From Halothiobacillus neapolitanus c2 (lineage in GTDB: Bacteria > Pseudomonadota > Gammaproteobacteria > Halothiobacillales > Halothiobacillaceae): 64,000 nucleotides of DNA. Shown here piece by piece: positions 49,022-62,875 of this stretch. The stretch covers positions 949,501 to 1,013,500 of the forward strand of contig NC_013422.1 in NCBI RefSeq assembly GCF_000024765.1, read 5' to 3'. Each line of letters starts with the position of its first letter. Positions within the stretch are counted from its first letter, which is position 1. The notes under the pieces were generated by a model. That model had not been told where the DNA came from. It saw nothing but the letters and a program-made list of their open reading frames with translations, and made no database searches. The position numbers and the translations under genes were made by a program.

Positions 49022-49108
49022 GCCCGGGTGGTGAAACTGGTAGACACAAGAGACTTAAAATCTCTCGAAGGAAACTTCGTGCCGGTTCGATTCCGGCTCC
49101 GGGCACCA
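49022..49108 (+). tRNA. tRNA-Leu (UAA)
   Basis: An 87-base class II tRNA with acceptor GCCCGGG pairing CCCGGGC (via ...CTCCGGGCACCA), a D-arm GGTGAAACTGGTAGACAC, anticodon loop CTTAAAA with TAA at 49056-49058, a long variable arm (CGAAGGAAACTTCG) and T-arm GTTCGATTC. CCA is encoded. Downstream genes look foreign, so its 3' end is a likely attachment site. Confidence 0.95.
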
Positions 49109-51907: not shown

Positions 51908-52468
51908 TTAATTCCTAACCCTGCACCACAGCTCCTCATGAAAAGTCTGGCATTCGTAAACTGAGCCGGATTTAATCGCAATATTCCAGATCAGTCCACC
52001 CGCCACCATCATTGCTACGGCCATCGCCGCCCCGGCAATCCCCCAGATGAGAACACTGCGTTTGCCTTCATTTTTTAGGTGTTTTTGCACCTCCTTATGC
52101 GCGGCGTCAGCCCAGACTGCGGTCACCGAGTCCACTTTTTTTGACGCAGCTTGCTCCAGTTTTTTATCGATGTCCGAAAGTTGTCTCTGGACTACAACTT
52201 CAACCTTGCCAAGGCCCTGCGCAACCGGCGTAGCGGCCTCAGAAAGAACCTGACCAAATCTCTTCCCAGCTTCATCAATCCTGCTTGGTAAAGTTTCGGC
52301 AGAGGAGGTGGCTTGCCTAATGTTTTCCTCAAACTCGGCGTTCTTTTGTCCTGCTACTGCGTGAACAGCGACCGCGACCGCTTCAATCAGTGCCAATGAC
52401 TCTGGCTCGTGAATGCCGGAGTCGATCAAGATTGCTTTAACCTTATTCTTGGTAATGTCATCCATCAC
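51908..52468 (-). CDS. StbC-like membrane-anchored protein (third gene of partition module)
   Basis: A 186-residue protein with a long helical, coiled-coil-like middle (about 35-130) and one membrane segment near the end (SVLIWGIAGAAMAVAMMVAGGLIWNIAI). It overlaps the ATPase gene upstream by ATGA. Gene order and sizes resemble stbA-stbB-stbC of plasmid R388; the third gene there is also poorly understood. The name is by analogy, not by sequence match. Confidence 0.6.
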   Translation of the reverse strand: MMDDITKNKVKAILIDSGIHEPESLALIEAVAVAVHAVAGQKNAEFEENIRQATSSAETLPSRIDEAGKRFGQVLSEAATPVAQGLGKVEVVVQRQLSDIDKKLEQAASKKVDSVTAVWADAAHKEVQKHLKNEGKRSVLIWGIAGAAMAVAMMVAGGLIWNIAIKSGSVYECQTFHEELWCRVRN

Positions 52469-53145
52469 TCAGCCCCTTTGACGAGGCCCACAAGATCGTC
52501 AGCCGACCGTATCCACTTCTTGATCATGGTCTTTGTGATGAGCGGTGTCGTAGGTTCAGCCAGAAGGTCACCAATGCTCATATCGTCCGTCAATCGCGTC
52601 AAAATTGCAGCTTGAAGAACTGGTATCGGAATGATGTGGTCAGACTCAAAGGACAAGGGTTTGTTGCGATAGTTGTTCAAAAGCAAAATGTTCGGCAACT
52701 TTGAACATATGCCTGAATTGGCGGATTTTTCATATGCTGCAACCGAGTTGGCTTGGCCGTCAGCCAAAAACATCACATAACTGGCAATGCCTGCTTCATT
52801 GATGGTTTCTCCGATCAGATCCCCTAGTGGATCGATAAATGCTGAGGCCCCGCCCGGCAGGTTGATTAATGTGACGTTGCCGTTTTCTCCGAAGGCATTG
52901 AATGCAGCTTCAACCACTTTCTCAACCCCGATTGAAATGTCAGCAGCATTCTCATCACGGGTTTGAAGTGGTGACATATAAATGCTTACAAGAGGGTTTG
53001 TGGCGTAGCGGTTAGCTATATCCCGCTGATCATCGGCCTCAACAATATTCACCTTCTCGTCACGTGATATCAGATTCTCAGCAACCCAGGCCAACGCAGT
53101 AGATTTACCCGCTCCACCTTTTTCACCATGAAAAAATAAAATCAT
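52465..53145 (-). CDS. StbB/ParA-like ATPase
   Basis: A 226-residue P-loop ATPase with a deviant Walker A at the extreme N-terminus (FHGEKGGAGKSTALAWVAENL), a switch-like EADDQRDIANRY and a Walker B-like VTLINLPGGASAF. This fits ParA/StbB-like plasmid ATPases rather than chromosomal ParA. It overlaps both neighbours by ATGA. It probably acts in plasmid or element positioning and conjugation balance, as StbB does in R388. Confidence 0.75.
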   Translation of the reverse strand: MILFFHGEKGGAGKSTALAWVAENLISRDEKVNIVEADDQRDIANRYATNPLVSIYMSPLQTRDENAADISIGVEKVVEAAFNAFGENGNVTLINLPGGASAFIDPLGDLIGETINEAGIASYVMFLADGQANSVAAYEKSANSGICSKLPNILLLNNYRNKPLSFESDHIIPIPVLQAAILTRLTDDMSIGDLLAEPTTPLITKTMIKKWIRSADDLVGLVKGAE

Positions 53146-53618
53146 TTCAATTCACCTCGTTTCAAGTTCTCGATTGTTTGCTCATTGGGGTAATCCTTGT
53201 CAGTCGGACGAACCAGACGGCCATTCACATAAATGGCATTGCCGGTCATCTCGATCTTCGGTCCCGCCCTCTGGAAATTAAGCGGTGAGCCTGGAGGATT
53301 AATCTGAGGCTTCCTTTTTTCCTCACTCCCAATAACTAGCTGTCGGGGTGTCTCCTGTTTTGCGACAGATAACTGTCCAGGTTCCGAATGAGGATTAATC
53401 CCGGAGCGCATCAATTCATCATTGATTTTTTCGGCAGCCTTCAATGCCCGGTGGAAGACCTCCCGATTTTTGCCGAGGCGACGGGCCAGTTCTGCACTGG
53501 TGGTGAATTTACGTTTCAGTAATACCCGGATTTCTCCGGCAAAGGGAGCAAGCCTCGCGGGCAGCGAGACGGCTGGCCATTCATTTACTTTTTGAATCAG
53601 ATCGTCGATTTCCAGCAT
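53142..53618 (-). CDS. StbA-like DNA-binding protein (candidate iteron binder)
   Basis: A 158-residue protein with an N-terminal helix-turn-helix (FTTSAELARRLGKNREVFHRALKAAE, about residues 40-65) and a disordered, Pro/Gln-rich C-terminal half. The ATG at 53618 has AGAGG seven bases upstream. It is the first gene of the three-gene module and lies directly beside the 11-bp iteron array, which it probably binds. Similar to StbA by position; sequence similarity was not tested. Confidence 0.65.
   Translation of the reverse strand: MLEIDDLIQKVNEWPAVSLPARLAPFAGEIRVLLKRKFTTSAELARRLGKNREVFHRALKAAEKINDELMRSGINPHSEPGQLSVAKQETPRQLVIGSEEKRKPQINPPGSPLNFQRAGPKIEMTGNAIYVNGRLVRPTDKDYPNEQTIENLKRGELK
53330..53357 (+). 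repeat. 28-bp shared motif, copy A (inside StbA-like gene)
   Basis: This segment starts CAATAACTAGCTGTC and ends GTGTCTCCTG. It recurs with one mismatch in reverse orientation at 57098-57125. A shorter version (ACTAGCTGTC-N4-TGTCTCC) is at 53647-53667, just upstream of the StbA-like start. Confidence 0.8.
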
Positions 53619-53646
53619 ACGGGTACCTCTTTTTTGTCCGTACACC

Positions 53647-53667
53647 ACTAGCTGTCAACGTGTCTCC
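53647..53667 (+). repeat. Shared motif, copy B (before the StbA-like gene)
   Basis: ACTAGCTGTC, four bases, TGTCTCC: the core of the motif also found at 53330-53357 and 57098-57125. It lies between the StbA-like start and the iteron array. Confidence 0.7.
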
Positions 53668-53672
53668 ATTTG

Positions 53673-53804
53673 TTGACTGGTCGTTGACCATTTGTTGACC
53701 GAAGATTGACGAAATGTTGACCTGTCGTTGGCCATCTGTTGACCAAGGGTTGACCGCTCGTTGATTGGTCGTTGACCATCTGTTGACCAAAGATTGACGA
53801 AAGA
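53673..53804 (+). repeat. Array of twelve 11-bp iterons (centromere or origin candidate)
   Basis: Twelve consecutive units with exact 11-base period, each starting TTGAC (once TTGGC, once TTGAT), for example TTGACCATCTG and TTGACCAAAGA. The period is about one helical turn. The array lies in the divergent gap between the StbA-like gene and the AAA ATPase gene. Known stb sites of R388 are also arrays of short direct repeats with 11-bp period beside stbA. It is most likely a partition/transfer-control site, less likely a replication origin. Confidence 0.85.
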
Positions 53805-53951: not shown

Positions 53952-55022
53952 ATGATCAAATCTTTTGCCGTTGAGAATTTTCGCTCTCTCAAGCAACTAG
54001 AGCTTTCAAATTTAAGTCGCGTCAACATACTTGTTGGCCGAAGCGCATCAGGTAAGACGGCCGCTTTAGAAGCAATTCGTATAGCACTAACGGGAACTCC
54101 CACTGTGGCGTGGCAGGTAAACTCACTTAGAGGCGTGCCAATGTTTATGCCGCCAAATCCACAACGAGATCAGTTTGAGTCTCAATGGGCTTCGATTTTT
54201 AATGATTATGATTTGGGGCGTTCGATATTATTTAAGTTGACTGATGAGCTAAACCAAGTCACTTCGCTAAAAATTTATTTTGATCAAAGAAACCCTATAA
54301 CACCTTCAACTCAACTTGCTTTAGGTTCATCTGTACCAACTACGATTGTGCCTCTGGCATTCGAACGAGTATTACTAGGTGGAAAGACAAATAAATTATA
54401 TGCAACGGTAAACCAGCAAGGTCACTTCCATCTTGATCAAGGTCAGGACTTAAGGCCGAATTCTGAGTTTTTTTCATCAAACTGGCAATCAAATGCGACT
54501 CAGATGGCTAGTTGGTTTTCACAAATAAGCATAGATGTCAACGACCAAACGAAAGATATAGTTAATCTAATCTGCAGGCAATTTCCTGAGATCGCTGACC
54601 TTGCTGTTCAGGCACCAACTCAATTTCCACTTTTATATGCCACCTTAAAATACAGTAATAGAAAAATACCACTTTCCTTGGTTTCATCAGGAATAAATAA
54701 ATTTATTTCTCTGATACTCGCCATAAGAATTTTCAAAGGTGGTGTGGTATTGATAGATGAAATGGAAAACGGGATATATTATCAAATGTTTCCGATTTTC
54801 TGGGAGGCTCTTTATCAATCAGCAGTTGAGACCAATACTCAGTTATTCTTGAGTACGCATAGTTGGGAATGCTTGAAAGCAGCTGTTCCTCTCATCGAGA
54901 AACACAGTGATGATTTCTCACTTATTCAAGTATTTCAGGATCAAGGCATCACGAAGGCGACATCTGTGTCTGGTTCAGATGCAGCGGCTGCAATCGACAG
55001 CGATATCGAAGTACGGCGGTAA
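53952..55022 (+). CDS. OLD-like AAA ATPase of a candidate defence pair
   Basis: A 356-residue ATPase of the AAA_21/OLD/RecF-like type. Visible are the start MIKSFAVENFRSLKQLELSNL, Walker A ILVGRSASGKTAALEAI, the ABC-like signature SLVSSGINKFISLILAI, Walker B GGVVLIDEMENGIYY and the switch FLSTHSWECL. The coding region is clearly richer in A and T than its neighbours, suggesting recent transfer. It precedes a DUF3226/TOPRIM-like gene by five bases. Paired ATPase-TOPRIM systems act in phage defence; here the partner is disrupted. Confidence 0.8.
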   Translation: MIKSFAVENFRSLKQLELSNLSRVNILVGRSASGKTAALEAIRIALTGTPTVAWQVNSLRGVPMFMPPNPQRDQFESQWASIFNDYDLGRSILFKLTDELNQVTSLKIYFDQRNPITPSTQLALGSSVPTTIVPLAFERVLLGGKTNKLYATVNQQGHFHLDQGQDLRPNSEFFSSNWQSNATQMASWFSQISIDVNDQTKDIVNLICRQFPEIADLAVQAPTQFPLLYATLKYSNRKIPLSLVSSGINKFISLILAIRIFKGGVVLIDEMENGIYYQMFPIFWEALYQSAVETNTQLFLSTHSWECLKAAVPLIEKHSDDFSLIQVFQDQGITKATSVSGSDAAAAIDSDIEVRR

Positions 55023-55027
55023 CACCC

Positions 55028-55441
55028 TTGGAAATCAAGAATGAAGTTGTCATAATTTGCGAAGGCGCAGCAGATAGAAATTTCTTCCGTAAACTCATCG
55101 AAAAGAGAAAAGAACTGCCGGGCATTGATGTTCCTTTCCCAGTACCGGGTAAGGATTTAGGCGGTATTAATGCCTTTCAGCATTGGCTCAAAGCCATTCG
55201 TGGTGATAGGCATGCTTTCTCTCGAATCAAAGGAGTATTATTGGTTGCAGACAGTGCAGATGATCCTCTGTTAACTTTTAATAACATCTGCACACAAATA
55301 ACACACGCAACCGGCTATGCTATTCCGACAAAACTTGATGAAGTAACACCTCACGCTGCCGGTTCCCCTCAAGTTTCAGTTATAACAATTCCGACCAGTG
55401 ATAAACCGGGTGGCTTAGAATCACTTGGCGGATGCAATGTC
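55028..55441 (+). pseudogene. DUF3226/TOPRIM-like gene, 5' part (split by IS30 element)
   Basis: The first 138 codons, from a TTG start, give VVIICEGAADRNFFRKLIEKR and GVLLVADSADDPLLTF, a pattern like the EG...DxD residues of TOPRIM-related DUF3226 proteins. The frame runs into the IS30-family element and stops there. The remaining part continues in frame after the element (56525-56830); joined, the protein would have about 238 residues. The intact gene probably encoded the nuclease-like partner of the upstream ATPase. Confidence 0.75.
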
Positions 55442-56524
55442 TGAGTGCAACACGGTTATTGAATTGAAGCAGGCGCATCATGGCGCATAGCTATGGCTTT
55501 CTCCATCACTTCGCTCATCACTTCGATAGGACATTTGAAGTCGAATCGCTTTCGCGGACGCAAGTTCAGTTGCAACGCAATGGCATCCAGGTCCTCCTGA
55601 CTGTGCGCAGACAAGTCCGTGCCCTTGGGTAGGTACTGGCGGATCAACCCGTTGATATTTTCGTTGCTGCCACGTTGCCAGGGGCTATGCGGATCGCAGA
55701 AGTAGATAGCCACCCCGGTTCGCTGTGTGATCTCAGCGTGCCGTGCCATTTCCCGGCCTTGGTCGTAGGTCATGCTCTTGCGCACCGCCTGCGGCATACG
55801 ATTGAGTGCCGCGCTGAAGCCTTCCATCGCCGAGGTCGCTGTCGCGTCATTCATCTTCACCAGCATCAGGTAGCCACTGCTGCGCTCGACCAGCGTGCCC
55901 ACAGACGATGCGTTAGCCTTGCCCTTGATCAAATCGCCTTCCCAATGCCCCGGCATCAGGCGGTCTTCGATCTCGGGAGGACGAACATGAATGCTCACCA
56001 TCTCCGGGATCTGACCACGCCGATCCACACCACCAGCGCGTGGTCTACGTGCTGTCTTGCCCTGACGAAGACAGATGATCAACTCCTTGCGTAGCTCGCC
56101 GACCGGCAAGGCATAGATCGCGTTGTAAATCGTCTCGCGACAAACGTAGGCATCTGTGAGGCTGGGTATGTTCATACGGCGTAGCTTGCCGGCAATCTGC
56201 TCTGGAGACAAACGCTCGCGCAGCAAATGGACCACCAACTCGAAGCGCTCACTTCCCGGCAACAGCTTGTGCTTCGGTCGGCAAACCTGGCGGCGAGCCT
56301 GCATCTGTTGCTGGGCTGCGCGAGCCGAGTAGTCTCTACAGTCATCTCGATTGCGGCGCAGCTCTCGGCTGATGGTCGAAGGGGATCGGTTGATCAGACG
56401 GGCAATCTTGCGCTGGCTGAGCCCCTGAGCATGACCGATTTGAATGGTGGCGCGCTCTTCAACGCTGAGTTCGGAATAAAACATAGGGGCAACACCGTAC
56501 CGATAAAATCTGGTGTTGCACTCA
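55442..56524 (-). mobile_element. IS30-family insertion sequence
   Basis: A 1083-bp element bounded by inverted ends TGAGTGCAACAC (left, 55442) and GTGTTGCACTCA (right, to 56524). The flanking triplets GTC and GTT may be a 3-bp target duplication with one change; treating them so restores the reading frame of the split DUF3226 gene exactly. It carries one transposase gene. Confidence 0.88.
55456..56484 (-). CDS. IS30-family transposase
   Basis: A 342-residue DDE transposase. It has the N-terminal helix-turn-helix of the family (ERATIQIGHAQGLSQRKIARLINRSPSTISRELRRN) and the catalytic blocks beginning at GHWEGDLIKGKANASSVG, TYDQGREMARH and SPWQRGSNENINGLIRQYLPKG. I chose the ATG at 56484 (MFYSELSVEERA); the longer frame would run across the element end. 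It appears intact, so the element may be active. Confidence 0.92.
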   Translation of the reverse strand: MFYSELSVEERATIQIGHAQGLSQRKIARLINRSPSTISRELRRNRDDCRDYSARAAQQQMQARRQVCRPKHKLLPGSERFELVVHLLRERLSPEQIAGKLRRMNIPSLTDAYVCRETIYNAIYALPVGELRKELIICLRQGKTARRPRAGGVDRRGQIPEMVSIHVRPPEIEDRLMPGHWEGDLIKGKANASSVGTLVERSSGYLMLVKMNDATATSAMEGFSAALNRMPQAVRKSMTYDQGREMARHAEITQRTGVAIYFCDPHSPWQRGSNENINGLIRQYLPKGTDLSAHSQEDLDAIALQLNLRPRKRFDFKCPIEVMSEVMEKAIAMRHDAPASIQ

Positions 56525-56830
56525 GTTTCTGCCGCCGCCCTTTGTATTACCGCGCTAATTGACAAGAGTCCAAATATTAATGATTGCGTCAACCAGTTTC
56601 TTTCCTGTGGCGATATTAATGCTCTTGATTGGTCTCCTGAGAAAGTTGATAAAGCCAGATTTCATTCTATTATCGCTGCTTCAAATGAAAATGATCCTAG
56701 TAGAGCATTATCTTACGCATTCAAAGGCGAGCAACCTGTCATTTCAGTAGAACATTGCTGTTTTGATGGCATATATAACAAAATTAAAGAATTTTGCGTA
56801 TCAGTCGGTGCATTATTACCCCAACAATAA
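56525..56830 (+). pseudogene. DUF3226/TOPRIM-like gene, 3' part
   Basis: The continuation of the gene split at 55441: SAAALCITALIDKSPNINDCVNQ at the start and a cysteine-containing end (HCCFDGIYNKIKEFC) before the stop at 56828-56830. It is AT-rich like the ATPase gene. It has no start of its own within the original gene and is probably not translated usefully. Confidence 0.75.
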
Positions 56831-57161
56831 CGCAATTCAGACCTTGTTTATTTCCTGATATCCCCTTGAAAAGTATTTTCTAAACTTAGTATTCACTCTC
56901 TCGCAAATCCCTCTCTCATCGGAAACTAAAAACACCAGCCTGATATTTCTCCACTGTCTACGCGCGCCGGAGGCGAATGGCGCTTGGTGGATTGATGCTG
57001 TGGAGGGGGGGGTGGAGGCGAGCCGAAGGCGAGAAAGGGAGGAACCCCAGAGGGGTTCCCCCCTCCGACTGGAGAAACGGACGACTTTTTCAGAAATCAG
57101 GAGACACCCTGACAGCTAGTTATTGAGGGGCTTCCTCAATAACTGTCGGAGAGTGTTTTTC
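56831..57161. other. Gap with hairpins before the exported-protein gene
   Basis: No gene is supported here. It contains a purine-rich tract (57001-57045), a perfect hairpin GGAACCCC-AGA-GGGGTTCC (57041-57059) and copy C of the shared 28-bp motif (57098-57125). A further 11-bp stem (57118-57144) overlaps the end of copy C. The combination resembles a plasmid regulatory or transfer-origin region. Confidence 0.55.
57098..57144 (+). repeat. Shared motif copy C joined to an 11-bp hairpin
   Basis: 57098-57125 repeats the motif of 53330-53357 in reverse orientation with one mismatch. Its last bases form the left arm of AGTTATTGAGG-GGCTT-CCTCAATAACT (57118-57144), a perfect 11-bp stem. GAC before and GTC after the stem can extend it around a bulge. 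The arrangement of a conserved site beside a hairpin is like a relaxase recognition site, but no known nic sequence is recognised. Confidence 0.65.
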
Positions 57162-57847: not shown

Positions 57848-58024
57848 ATGAAATGGAGTTTCGCTCTTCGGTATCTGATCGACACTAATCGACTTATATC
57901 TTCATGTTTCGATGATTGTCTTGAAACTTCAGTTTCAGATGCTTTGACGCGTCTTATCCTCAGAGCCCCTCATCCGTGCGCTCTCTCGCCTGGATATGAA
58001 CAATGTGGCGAGGTGCTGAAATGA
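57848..58024 (+). CDS. 58-residue small ORF coupled to the RHS gene
   Basis: A short frame (MKWSFALRYLIDTNRL...) with AGGGA eight bases before its ATG. Its TGA stop overlaps the ATG of the RHS gene (ATGA), so it could act as a leader ORF or translational coupler. It has four cysteines and no recognisable domain. Small size keeps confidence moderate. Confidence 0.45.
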   Translation: MKWSFALRYLIDTNRLISSCFDDCLETSVSDALTRLILRAPHPCALSPGYEQCGEVLK

Positions 58025-61000
58025 GAGGGATATTATTTCTATTTCTTCTGGCATGCTCGTCACCAAGCTTTGCCGGTTGGTATTGTAATGGTATGGACTA
58101 CCCATCCACTACTATCCCGGCTTTTGCTGCTAGCCCTTCTGGTTGTGCTGATATAGAAGAGCATTTAGACGAAAATTGGGATCCAAGATCAGGTATGGCG
58201 TATCCATATACGATCACAATGGCCTCCCCTGTACAGGCCGTTGTCACGTTCCATAAAACTGTAACTATCGACGGATACGGTGTCCCCATCGGAACAGTCG
58301 TGAATAATCCGCAATCAGTTTTCAAGTACTGGGGATGCAATAATGACGGCCCCAAATCAAGTATCGACTCATGCGCAAAGCCACAACCTCCCAAACGATT
58401 GGGTACACCTGCGCCTGGAAGCTGTACTGGTGATCCTTGTGACGCTGGCACAGGTAATGAATTCCAATATGATACCGACTATCAAGGCGCCTCGGACACT
58501 TTGTCCTTCAGCCGAGCCTATAACAGCCTAGATATTCAAGACCATGGTCTCGGTTACGGTTGGGTGTCCAATATCGGCGGACATCTGGCCATCAGCGGCA
58601 GTTTGCTGACGGCCTATCAGGCCATCAATGGCAGTTCGCTGACGGTCTATCAGGCCGACGGCAAGGGCCTCCCGTTTACGCTGACCAATGGTGTCTGGCA
58701 GGGCGATGCTGATTCCAAGCTGCAATTGACCCAGGACGCCACCGGTTACACCCTGCAACGTCAGGACGGCAGCAGCGATCGCTATGATTTGCACGGCCAT
58801 CTACTCAGTGAAACCGACCGGGCTGGCCGCACCACGACCTACACTTACGACAGCGCCAACCACATTGCCGCCGTCACCGGTCCGTTCGGACATACGCTTA
58901 CTTTTACCTACAATAGCTATGGGCGCCTCGTCAGCCTGACCGATCCAGTCGGACAGGTCACCAGCTACAGCTATGACACCGCTGGCAACTTGGCTCAGGT
59001 CAACTACCCTGACGGTACTGCCAAACAATATAGCTATGGCGACAGCAGTTTCTCGCATGCCCTGACCGGCGTTGCCTTCGTTGATGCCAACGGCAATGTC
59101 ACGCCGTTCGACAACTTCGTCTACGACAGCTACGGAAAGGTCACCACCAATGAATTGTCGGGCGGGCAGCAGCGCTTCGATCTGAGCTACGACTCCGACA
59201 CCCAGACCACTGTTACCAATGCGGCCGGTCGTCAGGATGTGTTGACCTTCCAGGCCCAACTGGGCGTCAAGAACCTGCTGTCCAATATCGTTCAAGGCGA
59301 CGGCAAGGGCCTGACTCAGCAGTTCGATGCCCGCAACAATGTGATCTCCCGCACCAATGCAGATGGCCAGACCACGCAATACACCTATGACAGTCAAAAC
59401 CGCCTGGCCTCAGAAACTCAGGCTGCCGGTACGTCGCAGGCCCGTACTGTCAGCTATCAGTACGGCACGGATGGCTTGGCTCTGCCGGCCGAGATCGACC
59501 GACCCAGCGTCTGCGCCGGTTCCAGCCAACAGACCGTCATCACCTACGATGCCCACCACAACCCGATCCAGATCACCGAGAACGGCTACACGCCCGCCTG
59601 CAGCGCCATCAGTCGCAGCCTGAGCTTGGGTTACAACAGCGCCGGTCAGGTGACCCGAATCGATGGCCCGCGTACCGACGTTTCTGACGTCACCACGATG
59701 AGTTACAACAACTGCACCACAGGTGGCGCTTGTGGTCAGTTGCTATCTCTGACAGACGCCCTAGGCCACATAACAACCTTTAACGCTTACGACGCAGATG
59801 GTCGTCTGCTACAGAAAACCGATCCCAATGGCCTCGTGACGAGCTACGCCTATGATCCTCGTGGCCGCCTGAGCCGGATCACCCAGCAGGCCAGCGGCAG
59901 TAGCGCACGGGTCACTACCTTTGCCTACACCCCGTCCAGCAAACTGGCCAGCACTTCGTTGCCGGACGGTCGCACACTGACCTACAGCTACGACGATGCC
60001 CAGGAACTGACCGCCATCACCGACAACCTCGGCGACAAGGTCAGCTACGCTTATGACAGCCGCGGTAACCGCAGTCAGACCAGCATTTACGATCCCGACA
60101 GTTCGCTGGTGCGACAGATCAAGAGCGTCTACGACCTGCGTAACCACCTGGCCAGCAGTAACGACAGCGGTTCGATCACCCAACAGGTCACCGATGCCTT
60201 GGGTAATCTGGTCCAGCAGACTGATCCCAACAACAACGCACCGACCACCCACAGCTACGATCCGCTCAACCGGCTGATCCAGACCGTCAACGCCATCGGC
60301 GGTACCACCAGTTACGGCTATGACGTCAACGCTGAAATCAATCAAGTCATTACCCCCAACGGTGCCACCACCGGCTACCAGAATGACGACTTCGGCGACC
60401 TGTTGCAGGAAGTCTCGCCAGATCGAGGCACCACCACCTACGCCTACGATGCCGCCGGCAACCTGATCCAGAAAACCGATGCCCGTGGCGTCATCGCCAA
60501 CTACAGCTACGATGCCCTCAACCGGTTGACGGCCACTCACTTCAGTGGGATGAGCCAAGCTAGCGATGCCGACATCACGCTGACCTACGATCATGGGCAG
60601 AACTGCAGCAACGGCATCGGCCACCTCTGCACAGCTCAGGATCAGTCCGGCACCACAATCTACGCCTACGATGCCTTTGGCAATATCCTCAACCAAATCC
60701 ACAGTGCAGGCACAACCACCTCCACCATCAGCTACCGGTACGACAACGGTAATCGCATTGCGATGATCATCTATCCCGATGGCCGAGAAGTCGGTTACAC
60801 ACGCGATGCCATTGGACGAGTCCAGGGGATCACCACTACTGCAGCCGGCAACAGCCAAACCCTGGTCAGTGCCCGCCAATACCATGCCGACGGTAGTTTG
60901 ACCGGAGAGACTTTTGGTAATGGCTTGGCCGATCAACGCCAATACACCGCTCAGGGCAGGCTTTCCAGCTGGACACTGGGCGGCAGCAACGTCAATCTCA

Positions 61001-62424
61001 ACTATGGCTACAGCTACGACGCCAATGGCAATATGACCGGTCAGAGCGGTCCCGATGGCGCTGCCGCCTACCAGTACGACCCGCTTGACCGCCTGATTGA
61101 CGAATCCTGGGGCACGGGCAACTACCACAACGCCTTCAGCTACGACAACAACGGCAACCGTCTGACCAGCCTGGACAGTGGTGGCAACACCGTCGACTAC
61201 AGTTACGACCTGCAGAGCAACCGTCTCAACCAACACGGCAGTCAGAAAATCACCTTGGATGCGGCAGGCAATACCACAAACGACGGTACCTATCAGTACC
61301 TCTACGATGCCGCCGGTCGCCTGAGTGAAGTACTGTTGAGTGGCGTTACCGTGGCCAGCTACCGCTATGACTATCGCGGCTTACGGCGGGAGAAGATCAT
61401 CGCAGCAGGCACCACCGAGTTCACCTACGGCCCCAGCGGCCACCTGTTAAGTGAGCAGAATACGGCAAGTGGTGGCCGAGACTACGTCTGGAGCGATACC
61501 AGCCCCATTGCCCAGATTGATGTAAACGGCAGCAATCAGGCCAACGACGCGATCTACTACCTCCATACCGACGCCATGGGCACACCGAGATTGGCGACCA
61601 ATGCCAATCAACAGACTGTCTGGCGATGGAACAGGGATGCGTTTGGGGATCGGCAGGTCAATGCGAGCAGTGCCAGTATCGAGATGAACCTGCGGTATCC
61701 GGGGCAGTATTACGACACCGAGACTGGGTTATTCTACAACTGGAATCGATACTATGACCCGAGTACTGGGCGGTATGCCACCAGTGATCCGATTGGGTTG
61801 AGTGGTGGAGTGAATACCTTTGGGTATGTTTCAGCTAACCCCTTGGCTCTTATTGATCCATGGGGGTTGTTTGGCAGTGCGCAGGTCAGCCCGATACCGC
61901 CTGGTTATAACTCGGGCGATGTCAGAGGTGCGTATGACTCATATGGCAATAGCTCGGTTTATGAACCAGGCTATTACGACCCTAACAGAGCAGCTGCGAT
62001 CATTATGGCTCTGCTTGCTGCCGGGATGGGGCCTGCTGCCGATGAGTTCGCTGCAATACTCGCTCACGCGGAAGAGGCCAGCGCGATTGGAGGTGAGTGT
62101 GAAGCTGCCGCTTCTTCGAAGCTGCCGTCGTTAGACGATTTATCACGTGCTGCCAGTGCTTCAGATAGAAATGGCTTTTCAAAAGCGGGGCGCTCTTTGC
62201 AGAAACACGGAAGCAGGCCGGGGTCCAAGTGGGGGCAAGAGGATGTGAACGTGAATAATCCCTCCGAGGCAAATTCGAGAGCACAAGGCCTCGTTGATGA
62301 TATTTTGAACTCACCAGGGACTAATGTGGTTCAAAACTCTCGTGGCGGTGTTGATGTGATCTCTCAAGATGGTCGGGTTGTTCGCTATAACCGGGATGGT
62401 TCAATGCAAGGTTTTCGGGAGTGA
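58021..62424 (+). CDS. RHS/YD-repeat polymorphic toxin
   Basis: A 1467-residue protein. It starts with an export signal (MRGILFLFLLACSSPSFAG), where LLAC could also be a lipobox. A DUF6531-like entry segment (DPCDAGTGNEFQYDTDYQG) leads into many YD repeats (YTYDSANHIAAVTG type) to about residue 1190. The RHS core follows (YYLHTDAMGTPRLAT..., then YYDPSTGRYATSDPIGLSGG). The variable C-terminal part (about 170 residues) contains GRSLQKHGSRPGSKW and GGVDVISQDGRVVRYNRDGS, a motif set seen in polymorphic RNase-type toxins. I chose the ATG at 58021 with GAGG seven bases upstream. Confidence 0.88.
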   Translation: MRGILFLFLLACSSPSFAGWYCNGMDYPSTTIPAFAASPSGCADIEEHLDENWDPRSGMAYPYTITMASPVQAVVTFHKTVTIDGYGVPIGTVVNNPQSVFKYWGCNNDGPKSSIDSCAKPQPPKRLGTPAPGSCTGDPCDAGTGNEFQYDTDYQGASDTLSFSRAYNSLDIQDHGLGYGWVSNIGGHLAISGSLLTAYQAINGSSLTVYQADGKGLPFTLTNGVWQGDADSKLQLTQDATGYTLQRQDGSSDRYDLHGHLLSETDRAGRTTTYTYDSANHIAAVTGPFGHTLTFTYNSYGRLVSLTDPVGQVTSYSYDTAGNLAQVNYPDGTAKQYSYGDSSFSHALTGVAFVDANGNVTPFDNFVYDSYGKVTTNELSGGQQRFDLSYDSDTQTTVTNAAGRQDVLTFQAQLGVKNLLSNIVQGDGKGLTQQFDARNNVISRTNADGQTTQYTYDSQNRLASETQAAGTSQARTVSYQYGTDGLALPAEIDRPSVCAGSSQQTVITYDAHHNPIQITENGYTPACSAISRSLSLGYNSAGQVTRIDGPRTDVSDVTTMSYNNCTTGGACGQLLSLTDALGHITTFNAYDADGRLLQKTDPNGLVTSYAYDPRGRLSRITQQASGSSARVTTFAYTPSSKLASTSLPDGRTLTYSYDDAQELTAITDNLGDKVSYAYDSRGNRSQTSIYDPDSSLVRQIKSVYDLRNHLASSNDSGSITQQVTDALGNLVQQTDPNNNAPTTHSYDPLNRLIQTVNAIGGTTSYGYDVNAEINQVITPNGATTGYQNDDFGDLLQEVSPDRGTTTYAYDAAGNLIQKTDARGVIANYSYDALNRLTATHFSGMSQASDADITLTYDHGQNCSNGIGHLCTAQDQSGTTIYAYDAFGNILNQIHSAGTTTSTISYRYDNGNRIAMIIYPDGREVGYTRDAIGRVQGITTTAAGNSQTLVSARQYHADGSLTGETFGNGLADQRQYTAQGRLSSWTLGGSNVNLNYGYSYDANGNMTGQSGPDGAAAYQYDPLDRLIDESWGTGNYHNAFSYDNNGNRLTSLDSGGNTVDYSYDLQSNRLNQHGSQKITLDAAGNTTNDGTYQYLYDAAGRLSEVLLSGVTVASYRYDYRGLRREKIIAAGTTEFTYGPSGHLLSEQNTASGGRDYVWSDTSPIAQIDVNGSNQANDAIYYLHTDAMGTPRLATNANQQTVWRWNRDAFGDRQVNASSASIEMNLRYPGQYYDTETGLFYNWNRYYDPSTGRYATSDPIGLSGGVNTFGYVSANPLALIDPWGLFGSAQVSPIPPGYNSGDVRGAYDSYGNSSVYEPGYYDPNRAAAIIMALLAAGMGPAADEFAAILAHAEEASAIGGECEAAASSKLPSLDDLSRAASASDRNGFSKAGRSLQKHGSRPGSKWGQEDVNVNNPSEANSRAQGLVDDILNSPGTNVVQNSRGGVDVISQDGRVVRYNRDGSMQGFRE

Positions 62425-62427
62425 TAG

Positions 62428-62676
62428 ATGAGTAATCAAGACTCGTTCCACATCAGTGTGGGTGATGATCCAGATCATGAGGATCTAACGGCGGAGGTGT
62501 ACTACGAGGGTGCATATCTCGCCTTGATCTCTCAGGAAAATGGCCTTGATAATGCTGAGATTGAATTGCAGCCCAATCCTTCAGGTGGTGCATGGATATT
62601 TGAACTGGAAGGTTTTGCTGATGCGCTTCAACGGGCCAAATGTCGCTTGTGGGATCTCAGAAGACGGGAGGAGTAA
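62428..62676 (+). CDS. Candidate immunity protein to the RHS toxin
   Basis: An 82-residue acidic protein (SVGDDPDHEDLTAEVYYEGAYLALISQENGLDNAEIELQPNPSGG) starting three bases after the RHS stop. Small acidic proteins in this place are usually immunity proteins that bind the toxin domain. The assignment rests on position, size and charge. Confidence 0.75.
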   Translation: MSNQDSFHISVGDDPDHEDLTAEVYYEGAYLALISQENGLDNAEIELQPNPSGGAWIFELEGFADALQRAKCRLWDLRRREE

Positions 62677-62698: not shown

Positions 62699-62875
62699 CG
62701 ACGCCTGCCGGCCGACTGGTCGCTGTTACCCGCGGTGGACGGACCATCGCCCACTACCGCTACGACTACCAGGGCCTGCGTCGGCAGAAGATCACCGAGG
62801 CAGGCACCACCGACTTCACCTACGACCCAAGCGGGTACCTGATCAGCCAGAGCGGACCCGGGAAGGCCGTGATGT
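62699..62875 (+). pseudogene. Remnant of a second RHS gene
   Basis: The frame from 62704 reads PAGRLVAVTRGG, then HYRYDYQGLRRQKITEAGTTDFTYDPSGYLISQSG. This aligns with DAAGRLSEVLLSGV...YRYDYRGLRREKIIAAGTTEFTYGPSGHLLSEQ near the end of the RHS repeats upstream. It has no start and no RHS core, and is likely a fragment left by recombination or displacement of toxin cassettes. Confidence 0.75.

What the first reader, a model, noticed from the sequence alone, without database searches (positions are those of the whole stretch)
53952..56830. AAA ATPase + DUF3226/TOPRIM-like defence pair knocked out by an IS30 insertion
An OLD-type ATPase is followed after five bases by a TOPRIM-related gene, the layout of ATPase-nuclease phage defence systems such as PARIS and Gabija-like pairs, but with DUF3226 in place of the usual partner. 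The region is AT-rich and foreign. The IS30 element splits the partner with its frame otherwise intact on both sides, which suggests selection to switch off a costly or toxic effector.
Basis: partly seen in the sequence, partly recalled or inferred. Interest (0 to 1): 0.6.

Follow-up and report, generated by a model that had tools for sequence, protein, structure and literature searches.

The report
Broken two-gene phage-defence cassette
A small foreign two-gene cassette, an ATPase plus a predicted nuclease of a widespread but untested family of bacterial phage-defence candidates, has lost its nuclease to a jumping gene; the cassette belongs to a known kind, and the most useful result is that the nuclease family of unknown function carries the active-site pattern of a known enzyme class.

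Summary
A 356-aa OLD/SMC-type ABC ATPase (53952-55022) is followed after 5 nt by a DUF3226 gene that an IS30-family element interrupts. The element is exactly 55427-56539 (1113 bp, 27-nt ends) with a CTT target duplication. IS plus duplication is 1116 bp, so both halves share one frame; they tile onto intact 227-229-aa relatives.

The partner is not unusual. DUF3226 directly follows this ATPase in at least 102 of 123 loci examined, in many phyla, in phage contigs and on small Klebsiella plasmids, and the two proteins have co-diverged (r=0.76). PADLOC lists the pair as candidate PDC-M38. The ATPase also matches AbiLi, but the partner is neither AbiLii nor PARIS AriB.

AlphaFold and conservation indicate that DUF3226 is a TOPRIM plus helical-domain nuclease whose invariant residues fall in the order of the two-metal site and catalytic lysine of Class 2 OLD nucleases. 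The insertion separates the metal ligands from that lysine.

Best reading: an AbiL/PARIS-like abortive-infection cassette, effector dead, ATPase intact. The idea that the insertion was selected to remove a toxic effector is untested and rests on one event. New member of a known candidate kind.

The parts
53952..55022 (+). ABC/OLD-type ATPase, 356 aa; Walker A G29-K35, signature-like SSG, Walker B D269-E270, His switch H303 all present
   Evidence: PADLOC AbiLi 3.4e-45 and PDC-M38A 5.5e-38; model pLDDT 93; motif conservation
55028..55426 (+). 5' part of the DUF3226 (TOPRIM) effector gene, 133 codons from TTG, holding E, D (EGAAD), D (ADSADD) and E (GLE) of the metal site
   Evidence: searches (DUF3226 9.3e-7; PDC-M38B 2e-4), alignment to intact relatives
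55424..55426 (.). CTT, left copy of the target-site duplication
   Evidence: sequence
55427..56539 (-). IS30-family insertion sequence, 1113 bp, 27-nt imperfect inverted ends (GGCGG...), single copy in the genome
55456..56487 (-). IS30-family transposase, 343 aa, intact (HTH_38 + rve)
56540..56542 (.). CTT, right copy of the target-site duplication
   Evidence: sequence
56540..56830 (+). 3' part of the DUF3226 gene (95 codons after the duplicated CTT, then stop), holding the invariant lysine of the helical domain; no start of its own
   Evidence: alignment to L037/L038 partners, 37-38% identity without gaps to L037

Best explanation
The locus is a remnant of a two-gene defence module. A dimeric ABC/OLD-type ATPase acts as sensor and as keeper of a separate TOPRIM nuclease, DUF3226. 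On sensing an infecting phage or other invader the ATPase would release or activate the nuclease, which cuts nucleic acid (tRNA as in PARIS, or DNA as in OLD/Gabija) with a two-metal site and a catalytic lysine and stops growth before the phage multiplies. An IS30-family element then inserted after codon 133 of the nuclease gene. The truncated product keeps the metal ligands but loses the helical domain with the lysine, so the module is almost certainly inactive here although the ATPase is intact. Shown: gene identities, the insertion and its borders, the conserved pairing and co-divergence, and (by prediction) the TOPRIM-plus-helical fold and the conserved catalytic pattern. Inferred: abortive infection, the sensor/keeper role of the ATPase, the nuclease activity and its substrate.
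For: Full-length match of the ATPase to AbiLi and PDC-M38A, and of partners to PDC-M38B (37 of 48, best 7.6e-71). DUF3226 directly behind the ATPase in at least 102 of 123 loci, 96 of them overlapping or within 10 nt; distance correlation 0.756 against a shuffled maximum of 0.084. Closest relatives (52% and 50%, clade support 0.998) are in phage contigs; L037's pair lies between portal and head-protease genes. Pair carried by 4.2-kb Klebsiella plasmids. Partner model pLDDT 92.9; beyond PH0156 (Z 12.4) the best structural relatives are OLD nuclease domains (Z 9.2), retron Eco2 (Z 9.1) and AriB (Z 7.2). ATPase model matches SMC/Rad50 heads, GajA, PtuA and AriA (Z 17.5-20). Invariant E14, D76 and E136, K175 (46/47), and mostly acidic residues at 18 and 78 follow the order of E400, E404, D455, D457, E508, K562 of Bp OLD (PMC6755086). 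AAA-neutralised TOPRIM toxins of the same architecture behaved as toxin-antitoxin pairs (PMC10440598).
Against: No DUF3226 pair is reported as tested in the papers held, and PDCs are mostly unvalidated (PMC12988326). The window's clade has DSAD/DSSD instead of DxD at the second aspartate, so the metal site may differ. Neighbouring genes give only a modest defence-island signal (a handful of PADLOC hits among 112 neighbours, without a control). An OLD-family ATPase-nuclease with an essential cell-cycle role exists in archaea (PMC12796447).
Confidence: 0.75

Rival explanations
1. The pair serves competition between mobile elements (plasmid exclusion or plasmid maintenance as a toxin-antitoxin pair) rather than defence against phages.
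For: Carriage on 4.2-kb ColRNAI plasmids; here it sits beside plasmid-like genes (ParA-like gene at 52465-53145, 11-bp-spaced TTGAC repeats, MobF relaxase fragment about 7 kb downstream); AAA/TOPRIM pairs behave as toxin-antitoxin pairs (PMC10440598).
Against: The closest relatives and most viral-contig copies are phage cargo; PARIS and AbiL, the nearest characterised relatives, act against phages.
Confidence: 0.2
2. The pair is a DNA repair or replication factor with no immune role.
For: The ATPase fold is that of SMC/Rad50 heads; the archaeal OLD protein Cran1 is an essential cell-cycle factor (PMC12796447).
Against: Very patchy distribution (DUF3226 in 9 of 369 genomes of the class; pair in none of nine congeners), carriage by phages and tiny plasmids, foreign base composition.
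Confidence: 0.08
3. The IS30 insertion was favoured by selection because the effector was costly or toxic, rather than being chance transposition.
For: The insertion hits the effector and leaves the ATPase intact; IS insertions into cas and other defence genes arise naturally and under DNA damage (PMC10359306); other decayed copies exist (L036, L062).
Against: One event; about 690 bp of effector against 1.07 kb of ATPase, so hitting the effector is not improbable; no expression, fitness or population data.
Confidence: 0.3
4. The 138-codon truncated TOPRIM product still works with the ATPase, for instance as an altered effector.
For: The left ORF keeps E14, D18, D76 and E136 and stays open.
Against: It lacks the whole helical domain and the near-invariant lysine (46/47), whose counterpart is needed for processive cleavage by Bp OLD (PMC6755086).
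Confidence: 0.04

Closest known systems
PDC-M38 (PADLOC-DB 2.0.0 two-gene phage-defence candidate)
   Same: ATPase matches PDC-M38A over its full length; intact relatives of the partner match PDC-M38B; same gene order and spacing
   Different: Here the B gene is interrupted; its left part matches weakly (2e-4)
AbiL (Lactococcus lactis AbiLi + AbiLii)
   Same: ATPase is a full-length AbiLi match (3.4e-45); two-gene ATPase + TOPRIM-like effector layout
   Different: AbiLii is RloB-related (PMC10440598); the window's partner has no AbiLii match and only 3 of 48 relatives reach it weakly
PARIS (AriA + AriB; Class 4 OLD)
   Same: Separate ATPase and TOPRIM nuclease genes, similar folds (AriA Z 17.8, AriB Z 7.2), phage and satellite carriage
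   Different: AriB is DUF4435, the window's partner is DUF3226 with no DUF4435 match; its best structural matches are PH0156 and OLD/retron TOPRIMs rather than AriB
Class 1/2/3 OLD nucleases (P2 Old, GajA, retron Eco8)
   Same: ATPase plus TOPRIM with helical domain; same order of catalytic residues
   Different: There the two domains are one protein; here they are two genes, and no helicase or reverse transcriptase partner is present

Membership tests
PDC-M38 | ATPase of the PDC-M38A family | tested here: met
   5.5e-38, residues 1-355 on 1-383 of 383
PDC-M38 | adjacent PDC-M38B (DUF3226) gene | tested here: met
   left half 2e-4 over 4-138 of 219; intact relatives 37 of 48; the gene is interrupted here
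PDC-M38 | anti-phage activity | not testable with these tools
   needs plaque assays; candidate status only
AbiL | AbiLi ATPase | tested here: met
   3.4e-45, 1-355 on 1-340 of 340
AbiL | AbiLii (RloB-type) partner | tested here: not met
   no AbiLii match at E<=1 for either half, none at 0.001 for the closest intact relative L037; 3 of 48 relatives at best 3.6e-5
PARIS | DUF4435 partner (AriB) beside AAA_15/AAA_21 ATPase (detection rule of PMC9122126) | tested here: not met
   the left half matches DUF3226 and not DUF4435, L037 matches DUF3226 only; DUF4435 in 2 of 48 relatives at best 6e-4
OLD-type two-metal TOPRIM nuclease | TOPRIM fold plus helical domain | tested here: met
   AlphaFold model of the intact relative; Z 9.2 to Bp OLD C-terminal region, 169 residues, 4.7 A
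OLD-type two-metal TOPRIM nuclease | E, E/D, DxD, E and K catalytic set | tested here: inconclusive
   family-wide E14, D18, D76, D/E78, E136, K175; in the window's clade the second D of DxD is shifted by one; residue equivalence to Bp OLD is inferred from order and spacing, not from superposed coordinates
IS30 family | HTH_38 + DDE (rve) transposase, inverted ends, short target duplication | tested here: met

The most novel reading that the evidence does not exclude
DUF3226, a Pfam family of unknown function, is the effector nuclease of a widespread, split form of the OLD immune ATPase-nucleases, distinct from PARIS and AbiL. It uses the Class 2 OLD two-metal site plus catalytic lysine, and an IS insertion between the two halves of that site has silenced it here.
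Probability: 0.55. Interest if true: 0.45.

Novelty: new member of a known kind. Interest (0 to 1): 0.3.

Why it matters
It turns an untested database candidate (PDC-M38 / DUF3226) into a concrete, testable nuclease hypothesis with named residues. It shows the family is spread over bacteria and archaea, phages and very small plasmids. The window itself offers a natural knock-out of the effector with the ATPase left intact.

Tried and rejected
Inner repeat CTGAGTGCAACAC as the IS border (1085 bp): rejected, it leaves no target duplication and breaks the frame, and the sister-species copy extends to GGCGG/CCGCC. PARIS or AbiL membership: rejected on the partner. Single-protein scans of viral contigs with the ATPase and with the left half found nothing; the profile scan did. 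Phage records: no match to the ATPase. Partner left half in plasmids: no match. Integration at the tRNA-Leu (49022-49108): no second copy of its 3' end in the window or the next 20 kb. One own-genome pattern search used a generic tRNA motif and was uninformative. Defence-island enrichment: only a few PADLOC hits among 112 neighbour proteins and no matched control, so not used as strong evidence. Papers on DUF3226 or PDC-M38: none in the library. The split gene was not rejoined; its halves were aligned apart.

Full report
What is there. The ORF at 53952-55022 encodes a 356-residue ATPase with AAA_15 and AAA_21 matches above Pfam's cut-offs. Five bases later a TTG opens a frame that matches DUF3226 (9.3e-7) and ends inside an insertion sequence whose transposase (HTH_38 + rve) reads on the minus strand. 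The AT-rich composition of both genes (GC 0.40, 0.43 and 0.36 against 0.52 for the window) and their absence from nine congeners mark them as foreign.

The insertion. A 92% identical copy in another species of the genus aligns over exactly 55427-56539 with unrelated flanks, and the ends form a 27-nt imperfect inverted repeat. With these borders the element is 1113 bp and is flanked by CTT on both sides, a three-base duplication as expected for this kind of element (chance of a random match 1 in 64). IS plus duplication is 1116 bp, so the two halves of the interrupted gene are in the same frame. The left half (133 codons) ends in GLESL and the right half begins LCITAL; on intact relatives these abut without gap or overlap apart from the duplicated leucine codon. 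The IS is the only copy in the 2.58-Mb chromosome at this similarity and its transposase is open. Perfect duplication and undamaged flanks point to a recent event.

The family. A profile of the ATPase found 28 loci in viral contigs and 80 in genome contigs; genome searches added 24 more with a usable ATPase. Of 123 ATPase loci examined, at least 102 have DUF3226 directly downstream, 96 of them overlapping or within 10 nt. The counts are lower bounds because the ORF picker hides some partners, and a few of the loci were found through DUF3226 itself. Sequence distances of the two proteins correlate at 0.756 against a permutation maximum of 0.084, so they have travelled as a unit; by record titles the hosts span Proteobacteria, Cyanobacteria, Chloroflexota, Bacteroidota, Acidobacteria, Planctomycetota and Methanosarcinales archaea. 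DUF3226 is rare in the window's class (9 of 369 genomes).

Context of intact relatives. The two closest ATPases (52% and 50%, clade support 0.998) are in viral contigs. In L037 the pair sits between a portal and a head-maturation protease gene, with the terminase upstream; other copies lie beside phage portal, replication and baseplate genes. About 4.2-kb Klebsiella plasmids carry the pair as half of their annotated genes. In L035 the pair is followed by another ATPase + small-gene pair. Others stand alone between ordinary genes. A PADLOC scan of 112 neighbours gave a handful of strong defence hits (BREX helicase-like, DrmD, CARF and PDC proteins), without a matched control.

Known names. PADLOC's best full-length matches are AbiLi (3.4e-45) and PDC-M38A (5.5e-38) for the ATPase and PDC-M38B for the partner. 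AbiLii is RloB-related (PMC10440598), and PARIS is defined by DUF4435 (PMC9122126); the partner is neither. PDCs come from a guilt-by-embedding screen and are mostly unvalidated (PMC12988326). The pair is therefore a member of a known candidate kind, and 'DUF3226 in place of the usual partner' is not right.

Mechanism. The intact L037 partner folds with mean pLDDT 92.9 as a TOPRIM followed by helices. Its structural relatives are the uncharacterised PH0156 (Z 12.4), the C-terminal regions of OLD nucleases (Z 9.2 and 8.8), retron Eco2 (Z 9.1) and AriB (Z 7.2). Across the 47 sequences covering each site E14, D76 and E136 are invariant, K175 is lysine in 46, position 18 is mostly D or E and position 78 mostly D or E. 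In Bp OLD the residues E400, E404, D455, D457, E508 and K562, in this order over TOPRIM and helical domains, form a two-metal site with a lysine needed for processive cleavage (PMC6755086). The match in order and spacing is an inference, not a superposition. The window's left half holds the positions of E14, D18, D76 and E136 (with the second aspartate of DxD displaced by one, DSAD); the right half holds K175. The insertion therefore parts the metal ligands from the lysine and removes the helical domain. The ATPase keeps all its motifs and folds like SMC/Rad50 heads, GajA, PtuA and AriA.

By analogy with PARIS, whose AriB is a two-metal tRNase (PMC12409363), and with AAA-neutralised TOPRIM toxins (PMC10440598), the intact pair most likely stops growth of infected cells through a nuclease held in check by the ATPase. 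Whether the substrate is tRNA or DNA is open. In this genome the effector is almost certainly dead.

Was the insertion selected? One insertion cannot tell. IS insertions into defence genes do occur (PMC10359306), and other decayed copies exist (L036, L062), but the effector makes up about 39% of the cassette, so a chance hit is not unlikely. The survey proposed under next steps would decide.

Verdict. Observation confirmed with corrected borders and length; interpretation partly supported; ordinary as a system (a member of a listed candidate family), with one useful addition: a specific catalytic hypothesis for DUF3226.

Noticed in passing
53330-53361, 53647-53667 and 57094-57125: A motif GGAGACAC..TGACAGCTAGT occurs three times: twice on the minus strand at the HTH-like ORF 53142-53648 and once on the plus strand just after the cassette, where it runs into a strong hairpin. 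The copies bracket the cassette as inverted repeats; the 26-nt core has two copies in the genome. Possibly a recombination or regulatory site.
   Followed up: partly
51908-53648 and 53672-53802: A minus-strand three-gene operon (small DNA-binding-like protein, ParA/VirC1-like ATPase, coiled-coil/membrane protein) preceded by 11-bp-spaced TTGAC repeats resembles a StbABC-type plasmid-maintenance operon; the resemblance to StbABC is from memory, only the ParA-like match was tested.
   Followed up: partly
L095:68-1903 (just beyond the window end): Helicase part of a MobF/TraI relaxase (37% to an Acidiphilium plasmid MobF), so the cassette probably lies in the remains of a conjugative or mobilisable element.
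   Followed up: partly
L018 (NZ_CP024435.1 and many similar Klebsiella records): ColRNAI plasmids of about 4.2 kb, common in Klebsiella pneumoniae, annotate only four genes, two of which are this ATPase + DUF3226 pair.
   Followed up: no
L036 7585-8866: A second, independently decayed copy of the pair (fragments) in another genome of the class.
   Followed up: no
L067/L080: Two ATPase + DUF3226 pairs in tandem in one genome (G559).
   Followed up: no
L145, L159, L162, L171, L075, L077: A long form of the ATPase (620-735 aa, some cut by the locus edge) with a longer partner (285-299 aa, weaker DUF3226 score), probably a separate subtype.
   Followed up: no
58003-62424: A 1473-aa RHS-repeat protein gene followed by a small ORF (62428-62676) and a partial duplicate of RHS sequence (62743-62846, 79% to 61348-61451), typical of a polymorphic toxin locus.
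   Followed up: no
L095 7449-19993: A large modular polyketide synthase cluster begins about 7.4 kb beyond the window end, next to IS fragments.
   Followed up: no
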